From positions 68,671,760 through 68,735,759 of the forward strand of contig NC_080162.1 of NCBI RefSeq assembly GCF_950295315.1: 64,000 nt of DNA. Direction: 5' to 3'. A model generated the notes under the pieces. The model worked only from the letters and a program-made list of their open reading frames with translations, did no database searches and had not been told where the DNA came from. The DNA comes from Erinaceus europaeus (Eukaryota > Chordata > Mammalia > Eulipotyphla > Erinaceidae). Shown here one piece after another: positions 53,397 to 54,861 of this stretch (positions within the stretch are counted from its first letter, which is position 1; each line of letters starts with the position of its first letter). Position numbers and translations under genes: made by a program.

Positions 53397-53646
53397 TATT
53401 ATCATTTCCCTTTTGCACATTTTTTTCTAGAAAACAGACATTTATATTAGTTGGGGTCTTTGCACACATGCACACACACACACAAACAGAGACACACACA
53501 CCCATAATATTGTGTCTTGTTTGAAAAAAAATAAAAGGCAAATTCCTCCCTTAGTCTTTCCAGAGTCTAATTGATTCTCTGGGCAGTCCCTTCTGATTGG
53601 TCATTGTCACACCTCTCCATCACCACCTACCTACAGAAGATTCCGG

Positions 53647-54255
53647 GTGCATCTGGGTGACAAGTCTAGCAGATGGAGACTTGTCTCAAGTGACCTCCCC
53701 CAGGGCTCTGTTCTGGCTCCTACACTATTTAATATTTACATCAATGACCTCCCAGAAACTTCTTCAAGGAAGTTCATCTACGCCGATGACATCTGCTGTG
53801 CAACTCAGGCATCCAAGTTCGACATCCTCGAGGAAACACTCACGAAAGACATGTCTCTGATATCTGTTTTCCATCTACACCATGCCCCGGCCTCGCGTGA
53901 GCTTAATGTGCAGCTTGGCGATAAGAGAATCCGGCATGAAGCCCAGCCAGTCTATCTTGGCGTTACTCTCGATCGCACCCTGTCATTTCACGAACATCTC
54001 ATAAAAACTGCAGCAAAGGTGGGTGCGAGGAATAACATCATTGCAAGACTGGCCAGCTCCTCATGGGGCGCGAGCGCTTCCACACTACGATCATCATCTC
54101 TGGCATTATGCTATTCCACTGCAGAATACTGTGCCCCAGTATGGTTCCATAGCCCCCATGTCCACTTGGTCGATTCCAAATTATATTCCTCCATGAGGAT
54201 AATTTCTGGAACCATCCGTTCCACCCCTGGTTCCATGGCTGCTGCCAGTTCTTAG
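53647..54255 (+). pseudogene. Reverse transcriptase, palm/thumb part, truncated
   Basis: A 202-codon open frame. Residues 18-36 read 'PQGSVLAPTLFNIYINDLP', the RT motif before the active site. The catalytic Y-A-D-D is at residues 45-48 (53779-53790) and intact. The thumb motif 'YLGVTLDRTLSFHEHL' is near residues 107-122, followed by 'STAEYCAPVW'. This arrangement belongs to the Jockey/CR1/I group, clearly different from the L1 'RQGCPLSPLLFN...FADD'. The usual palm segment between the strand after Y-A-D-D and 'VFHLHH' looks about 16 residues short, suggesting a small in-frame deletion. A frameshift near 54230 ends the frame early. Confidence 0.87.
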
Positions 54256-54754
54256 CAACATCGCCCCGCCAGATATTCGTCGGGATGCAGCATCATCTAA
54301 GTTCATTTCCCACGTCTACGCTCGACCAGACCTGCCAATATAAGTGGATATCTTCGCCCACCCTGTCCAACGCTTGACGTCTCGTCACCCAGTCTGGTCC
54401 CCTACGCCTACACTGAACTTCTCTGTTCCAGACTTTTGGAAACAGAGTTGGCAGTCAGCTGAGGTAAAGAACAAGCACCTCATCACAGACCCCTGCAAGC
54501 GTCAACCCGGCTTTGACCTAGCACGTTATGATTGGGCCCTCCTCAATCGCTATCGAACAGGCCATGGCCAGTGCGCCGCTATGTTCCATCGCTGGGGAGC
54601 CAGAGACGACCCGAACTGCCCCTGCGGCTACAGACAGACTATGACCCACATAGTCAATGACTGCCACCTCTCCAGATTCAAAGGAGGTCTCGAAACTTTA
54701 CATCAGGCTCAACCTGACGCTGTTGACTGCCTACGGAAGAAGGGCAAAAGCTAG
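54256..54754 (+). pseudogene. Same retrotransposon, C-terminal region
   Basis: After the frameshift the protein continues in another frame (text equivalent to 'LSNIAPPDIRRDA' from about 54251), meets one in-frame TAA at 54341-54343, then runs open to TAG 54752. The C-terminal part holds 'GHGQCAAMFHRWGARDD' and a C-x-C-G...H-x4-C motif ('CPCGYRQTMTHIVNDC'), a zinc-knuckle-like end typical of several non-LTR clades. One frameshift plus one nonsense codon make it inactive, but it is far better preserved than an ancient repeat. Confidence 0.85.
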
Positions 54755-54861
54755 AAGAAGAACCACCTACCAAGATTAGCTGTGGTTTGCTGACTGATCT
54801 AAGTGTCCCAAGAACTACGGTCATTTTACATTACAATGAATCATGGATAATACTGATAACA

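What the first reader, a model, noticed from the sequence alone, without database searches (positions are those of the whole stretch)
53632..54761. CpG-rich Jockey/CR1-type retrotransposon in a hedgehog-like genome: candidate horizontal transfer
Seen: an RT with 'PQGSVLAPTLFN' and Y-A-D-D, a C-terminal Cys/His motif, only one frameshift and one stop, and abundant CpG in an otherwise CpG-poor window. Known: placental LINE activity is L1 (with BovB in some lineages); CR1/L2-class copies in mammals are very old and much more decayed. Inference: this copy arrived recently, perhaps from an invertebrate or fish-like donor by a parasite vector. A MIR about 100 bp downstream argues that this is not simple contamination.
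Basis: partly seen in the sequence, partly recalled or inferred. Interest (0 to 1): 0.8.

Follow-up and report, generated by a model that had tools for sequence, protein, structure and literature searches.

The report
Truncated Vingi LINE copy in hedgehog
The sequence is one broken, recently made copy of a jumping gene that already has tens of thousands of copies in this hedgehog-like genome and very likely belongs to a family described in 2011, so it did not arrive here by itself from a parasite; the one possibly new point is that the family's 5' ends look like a self-cutting RNA.

Summary
Window 53632-54761 is a 1,130-bp non-LTR retrotransposon fragment with a perfect 10-bp target-site duplication. 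CpG observed/expected is 0.66, against 0.16 for the rest of the window.

The host genome holds about 38,000 matches to the same 3' end (0.9 expected per 64 kb). In a sample chosen by similarity, copies differ from their majority by about 1% outside CpG. This copy was therefore made locally by retrotransposition, not transferred by itself. The anatomy of relatives (about 3.09 kb, one endonuclease-RT protein, no RNase H match, GAA tail, internal-deletion derivatives) fits the Vingi family reported from hedgehogs in 2011, for which horizontal transfer is already a published suggestion. I found no donor, and vertical survival is not excluded.

Possibly new: the family's exact 5' terminus fits an HDV-like self-cleaving ribozyme. 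Rfam gives E=0.03, below the family cut-off. A strict descriptor fits 30 of 55 copies and gives no hit in 11 Mb of controls. Cleavage is untested.

The parts
53622..53631 (.). upstream copy of the 10-bp target-site duplication ACCACCTACC
53632..54761 (+). 5'-truncated, internally deleted LINE copy (Vingi type), 1,130 bp
   Evidence: 30 of the 40 scored matches are 96-97% identical over the part after the deletion
53635..54228 (+). reverse transcriptase C-terminal part, open frame, contains YADD
   Evidence: RVT_1 E=1.3e-7; translation P0122
53862..53866 (+). junction of a private 54-bp deletion (18 codons) between ATCTG repeats
   Evidence: alignment to L010 and L011; junction pattern with up to 3 mismatches found once in G000, only here
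54226..54245 (+). frameshift region (1-nt and 3-nt insertion relative to copy L011)
54341..54343 (+). in-frame TAA stop in the second frame
54227..54754 (+). C-terminal region with Cys/His motif (by eye), ends in TAG
   Evidence: no Pfam match; relative P0121 51% identical, itself only a sub-cut-off zf-RVT match, E=0.012
54755..54761 (+). short GAA-type 3' tail directly after the stop codon
   Evidence: similar tails in the plus-strand copies printed
54762..54771 (.). downstream copy of the target-site duplication
54845..55081 (+). MIR SINE, host flank
   Evidence: recalled consensus

Best explanation
The window holds a dead, 5'-truncated copy of a LINE family (very probably Vingi) that has expanded recently inside this hedgehog-like genome. 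Shown: the copy, its target-site duplication, about 38,000 matches to its 3' end in the same genome, and the anatomy of full-length relatives. Inferred: a full-length element was transcribed, its endonuclease nicked the target, reverse transcription started at the GAA tail and stopped early (so the endonuclease and the N-terminal RT part are missing), and repair left the 10-bp duplication. The 54-bp deletion between ATCTG repeats and the frame errors arose in or after that event. This copy lacks what it would need to move by itself.
For: Perfect 10-bp TSD. 38,207 places match the 38-bp 3' end with at most 3 mismatches, reversed-pattern control 0, i.e. 0.9 per 64 kb. The 38 distinct copies compared differ from their majority at 0.13-1.67% of non-CpG sites; the window copy at 6 of 783 (sample chosen by similarity). 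Copies L039 and L041 share about 3.09 kb; L039 has endonuclease and RT domains in one 981-aa frame and no RNase H match. The deletion is private. 14 of 25 short derivatives have TSDs of 9 bp or more, against 0 of 600 mismatched pairs.
Against: No named Vingi reference sequence was available, so the clade name rests on architecture, host and literature. 11 of the 25 short derivatives showed no TSD of 5 bp or more. In one search direct repeats of 7 bp or more lie within 25 bases of the ends at 16 of 37 non-window loci with both ends inside; that loose test had no control, one repeat is tail-like (L014) and those of L041 and L042 lie over 10 bases off the 5' end.
Confidence: 0.93

Rival explanations
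1. The Vingi family as a whole entered the hedgehog lineage by horizontal transfer from a non-mammal and then expanded (this adds to the best explanation and does not exclude it).
For: Published as likely (PMC3183009, passage seen). The family is large and young. The relatives named in the 120 rows listed by each are fish, turtles, amphioxus and invertebrates; no mammal is named there (most rows are unnamed).
Against: No close donor: apart from unnamed P0123 no row exceeds 58% identity. The tree does not place the hedgehog branch. Vingi fossils are reported in human (PMC5753468, PMC9004415; passages), so vertical survival remains possible.
Confidence: 0.6
2. This single copy arrived directly and recently from a parasite or fish-like donor.
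For: High CpG and few disablements.
Against: About 38,000 matches to its 3' end in the same genome, many at 96-97% over 900 bases; it has its own TSD and a truncated 5' end.
Confidence: 0.01
3. Contamination or assembly artefact.
For: None found; read data were not available.
Against: Copies lie on many large contigs of the same assembly; perfect TSD and a MIR beside it.
Confidence: 0.01
4. An old mammalian CR1/L2 relic kept by chance or by selection.
For: Same broad class of element (LINE).
Against: Under 2% non-CpG difference from the majority in 38 copies and open frames up to 983 aa in other copies.
Confidence: 0.01

Closest known systems
Vingi-1_EE and its non-autonomous derivatives (Kojima, Kapitonov, Jurka 2011, MBE 28:17-20; reference seen, paper itself not held)
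   Same: hedgehog-type host, endonuclease-RT protein without RNase H match, recent expansion, internal-deletion derivatives (the published features partly recalled from the abstract)
   Different: no sequence comparison was possible; whether a 5' ribozyme was noted there I could not read
L1Tc/ingi clade with Pr77 HDV-like ribozyme (PMC4035085, abstract and passages)
   Same: Vingi is published as Ingi-related; short internally deleted derivatives keep the 5' end; HDV-like fold at the 5' terminus
   Different: trypanosomatid elements with measured cleavage; the sequence here is untested
RTE1_Sar in the common shrew (PMC6542046, passages)
   Same: candidate horizontal LINE transfer into a eulipotyphlan mammal
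   Different: another LINE clade (RTE), with nematode relatives identified; that paper's passages do not mention Vingi

Membership tests
non-LTR retrotransposon (target-primed insertion) | RT domain, target-site duplication, 5' truncation, 3' tail | tested here: met
Vingi | endonuclease plus RT in one protein, without RNase H (feature recalled from the 2011 abstract) | tested here: met
   PF03372, PF14529 and PF00078, no RNase H family at E up to 0.1, in L039; the window copy itself lacks the endonuclease part
Vingi | RT tree position as sister of Ingi | not tested
   no named Vingi or Ingi sequence in hand; the tree has no such reference
Vingi | non-autonomous families made by internal deletion (recalled) | tested here: met
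   25 of 52 loci with an exact 5' end are derivatives of 157-573 nt by the script's rule, and 6 of the other 27 also show an internal jump; two recurrent junctions
Vingi | hedgehog host | tested here: inconclusive
   ERI-type SINEs recognised from memory; genome unnamed
Jockey or CR1 | RT tree position | not tested
   no named references of these clades
HDV-like ribozyme (family 5' end) | double-pseudoknot helices P1, P2, P3, P4, L3 motif and CNRA before P2 (descriptor recalled, written after seeing the sequence) | tested here: met
   strict descriptor: 30 of 55 copies fit, 25 do not; 0 hits in 171 control sequences of 64 kb and 0 in the window. P1, P2, P3 pair in 97-98% of cells of 55 copies, slid 19-70%; CTGA in 52 of 55; P4 as first written only 74%. 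The 55 were chosen by an exact match to bases 1-23, so the 5' strands of P1-P3 could not vary
HDV-like ribozyme (family 5' end) | Rfam RF00094 gathering score of 50 bits | tested here: not met
   25.1 bits, E=0.03; 21.1 bits, E=0.18; no match when L039 and L041 were scanned whole
HDV-like ribozyme (family 5' end) | self-cleavage | not testable with these tools
   needs an in vitro transcript

The most novel reading that the evidence does not exclude
The hedgehog Vingi family (about 38,000 3' ends, about 8,800 matches to its first 23 bases) begins with an HDV-like self-cleaving ribozyme that cuts element RNA out of longer transcripts exactly at its first base. That would make it a young mammalian LINE and SINE-like family whose RNA 5' ends are made by a ribozyme, with a natural minimal unit of about 117 nt of 5' sequence plus about 40 nt of 3' sequence.
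Probability: 0.7. Interest if true: 0.55.

Novelty: already known. Interest (0 to 1): 0.35.

Why it matters
The finding as given is an ordinary member of what is very probably a published family. If the 5' ribozyme is active, it would explain the sharp 5' ends of the family and of its small derivatives, add a mammalian LINE to the ribozyme-processed elements, and supply a compact natural system for retrotransposition tests. It would also mean that thousands of candidate ribozymes are scattered through one mammal genome: 8,755 places match the first 23 bases, and 30 of 55 sampled copies fit the strict fold.

Tried and rejected
Rejected: a single recent arrival (copy number). A deletion subfamily for the window copy: the junction is found only once. 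Relatives in viral contigs or in prokaryote genome contigs: none confirmed at that sensitivity. Solved structures for the window RT piece: no credible match; the L039 protein matches L1, R2 and group II RTs among others.

I first read the 5' end of L041 as starting ten or eleven bases earlier, with a long hairpin. The other loci show that the family begins at GGGATGC, so part of that hairpin is flank and it is dropped; the TSD given for L041 is therefore doubtful.

The first, loose ribozyme descriptor fitted 12 of 15 copies, but the first solution it printed used another P2, and it gave 6 hits in the window (both strands) and 19 in six shuffles: too weak. The strict one is the result used. Both were written after seeing the sequence, with the HDV rules recalled. 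The plain fold of the first 70 nt is only modestly stable (z -2.4; 4 of 200 shuffles as good) and prefers another inner helix to P3; it cannot show P2. P4 as written has an A-G first pair (74% of cells); CCCA/TGGG, as in the fold, fits better.

Paper searches. 'Vingi-1_EE' is in no held paper; Vingi or hedgehog together with such ribozymes in none.

Full report
What is there. Window 53632-54761 (+) is a 1,130-bp LINE fragment between two identical 10-bp copies of ACCACCTACC. It encodes the RT from shortly before the PQGSVLAPTLFN motif to the end of the protein, in two frames, with a stop at 54341 and a final TAG at 54752 followed directly by a GAA-type tail. Pfam finds RVT_1 in the first frame (E=1.3e-7) and nothing in the second. 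CpG O/E is 0.66 against 0.157 for the rest. Compared with copies L010 and L011 it lacks 54 bp between two ATCTG repeats, and relative to L011 it has a 1-nt and a 3-nt insertion at the frameshift. The deletion junction, with up to 3 mismatches, occurs once in the 2.72-Gb genome, here.

The family. The window lies in G000, 2,720,570,532 bases in 1,172 contigs. A protein search scored 150 of 20,304 candidates and reported 293 matches; many of those listed lie in open frames of 400-983 aa. A DNA search scored 40 of 4,903 candidates: nine others that reach across the deletion are 92-94% identical, and 30 that start after it are 96-97% identical. The 38-bp 3' end is present 38,207 times with up to 3 mismatches (reversed control 0), about 14 per Mb or 0.9 per 64 kb, so one copy per window is what one expects. 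Of the 43 loci then held, one partial locus (L004) and four identical duplicates were dropped. The 38 distinct copies left differ from their majority at 0.13-1.67% of non-CpG sites (window copy 6 of 783; also 10 of 106 CpG bases) and by 1.6% on average from each other outside CpG. With mammalian neutral rates of 2-5e-9 per site and year (recalled) this is a few million years. The sample was chosen by similarity to the window copy and so leans young.

Anatomy of full-length copies. L039 and L041 share about 3.09 kb. L039 has one 981-aa frame with endonuclease (PF03372, PF14529) and RT (PF00078) and no RNase H match; its C-terminus departs from the other copies and looks frameshifted. The family's 5' end is GGGATGCATTGG..., with the ATG at about nt 92; upstream bases are not conserved apart from T at -1 in 36 of 55. 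Matches to the first 23 bases number 8,755 at up to 2 mismatches. Among 52 loci with an exact 5' end, 25 are internally deleted derivatives of 157-573 nt by the script's rule, and 6 of the other 27 also show an internal jump. Eight join position 117 to 3042 exactly (a ninth nearly) and seven join 149-152 to 3028. 14 of the 25 have a TSD of at least 9 bp and 11 have none of 5 bp or more; 0 of 600 mismatched pairs reach 9. In 11 of these 14 the upstream TSD ends directly before G1, in three one base earlier.

What it is called. The host carries ERI-type SINEs (recalled), and the literature names a Vingi family in hedgehogs: reference lists give Kojima et al. [quoted passage not shown] The 2011 paper itself is not held. 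Its statements on RNase H and on internal-deletion families are recalled from its abstract. No Vingi reference sequence was available, so the name is strongly suggested but not tested by sequence.

Horizontal or vertical. With the 373-aa read-through the protein search lists one 91% match (P0123, 582 aa, from an unnamed ENA contig of 2,072 nt, possibly hedgehog DNA itself) and then no row above 58% (120 rows listed of 1,372). With the shorter RT query rows reach 69%, but over only 56% of the query (120 rows listed of 1,687). Named relatives in these rows are fish, turtles, amphioxus, a sea slug, insects and a pseudoscorpion. A tree of 41 rows (two hedgehog rows, P0123, 16 named and 22 of the unnamed) puts the hedgehog rows and P0123 together on a branch of 0.45 in an unresolved fork with turtle, fish and unnamed sequences; the window row fills only 35% of the columns. 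Vingi fossils are reported in human (passages). So the data fit the published horizontal-transfer idea but do not show it.

A candidate ribozyme at the family 5' end. The first 70 nt can form P1 (1-7 with 30-36), P2 (11-16 with 65-70), P3 (17-19 with 27-29) with the loop TTCCCGT, a short P4 (CCCA/TGGG) and CTGA directly before P2: the HDV-like double pseudoknot (rules recalled). On 95 nt of L044 Rfam's HDV_ribozyme is the best match among 4,227 families, 25.1 bits, E=0.03, starting two bases before G1; it is below the gathering score of 50. L094 gives 21.1 bits, E=0.18. The scan of whole L039 and L041 gave no such match. A strict descriptor fits 30 of 55 copies at G1 (25, carrying changes, do not fit), and gives 0 hits in 109 shuffled and 62 random 64-kb sequences and 0 in both strands of the window. 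P1, P2 and P3 pair in 97-98% of cells, against 19-70% when slid; but the 55 were chosen by an exact match to bases 1-23, so only the 3' strands could vary. At position 35, the most variable site, 21 of 22 changes keep a G-U pair. The copies are too alike for a real covariation test, and the plain fold does not by itself demand this structure. Ribozymes of this kind are known in the L1Tc/ingi clade, whose short internally deleted derivatives also keep the 5' end (PMC4035085, abstract and passages). Searches of the held library for Vingi or hedgehog with such ribozymes found no paper; most subscription papers are not held. The window copy, being 5' truncated, lacks this part.

Verdict. Ordinary copy of a young family that is very probably the published Vingi. 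The horizontal-transfer claim is not new and not settled here. The 5' ribozyme is the part worth a bench test.

Noticed in passing
L044 1501-1570 (family 5' end; also in L045-L095): Candidate HDV-like ribozyme at the exact 5' terminus of the LINE family and of its short derivatives.
   Followed up: partly
L051, L052, L055, L056, L062, L067, L069, L080: Recurrent derivatives of about 160 nt joining the first 117 nt to the last 40 or so: SINE-like units of the LINE.
   Followed up: partly
5' junctions of 55 loci: Base -1 before the element is T in 36 of 55; the other nine upstream positions tabulated are mixed.
   Followed up: no
P0123: Public ENA protein, 91% identical to the read-through of the window copy, from an unnamed 2,072-nt contig; may be hedgehog DNA in another sample.
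   Followed up: no
window 13738-14584 (+) and 2368-2562 (-): Weak RT-like matches, perhaps L1 remnants.
   Followed up: no
window 52264-52600: ERI-like SINE (recalled), within the second most CpG-rich stretch of the window.
   Followed up: no
L040 4112-4873 (+): Open 253-aa frame that looks like L1 ORF1 (by eye), so L1 may also be young in this genome.
   Followed up: no
3' ends of the plus-strand copies printed: The stop codon adjoins the GAA tail: almost no 3' UTR.
   Followed up: no
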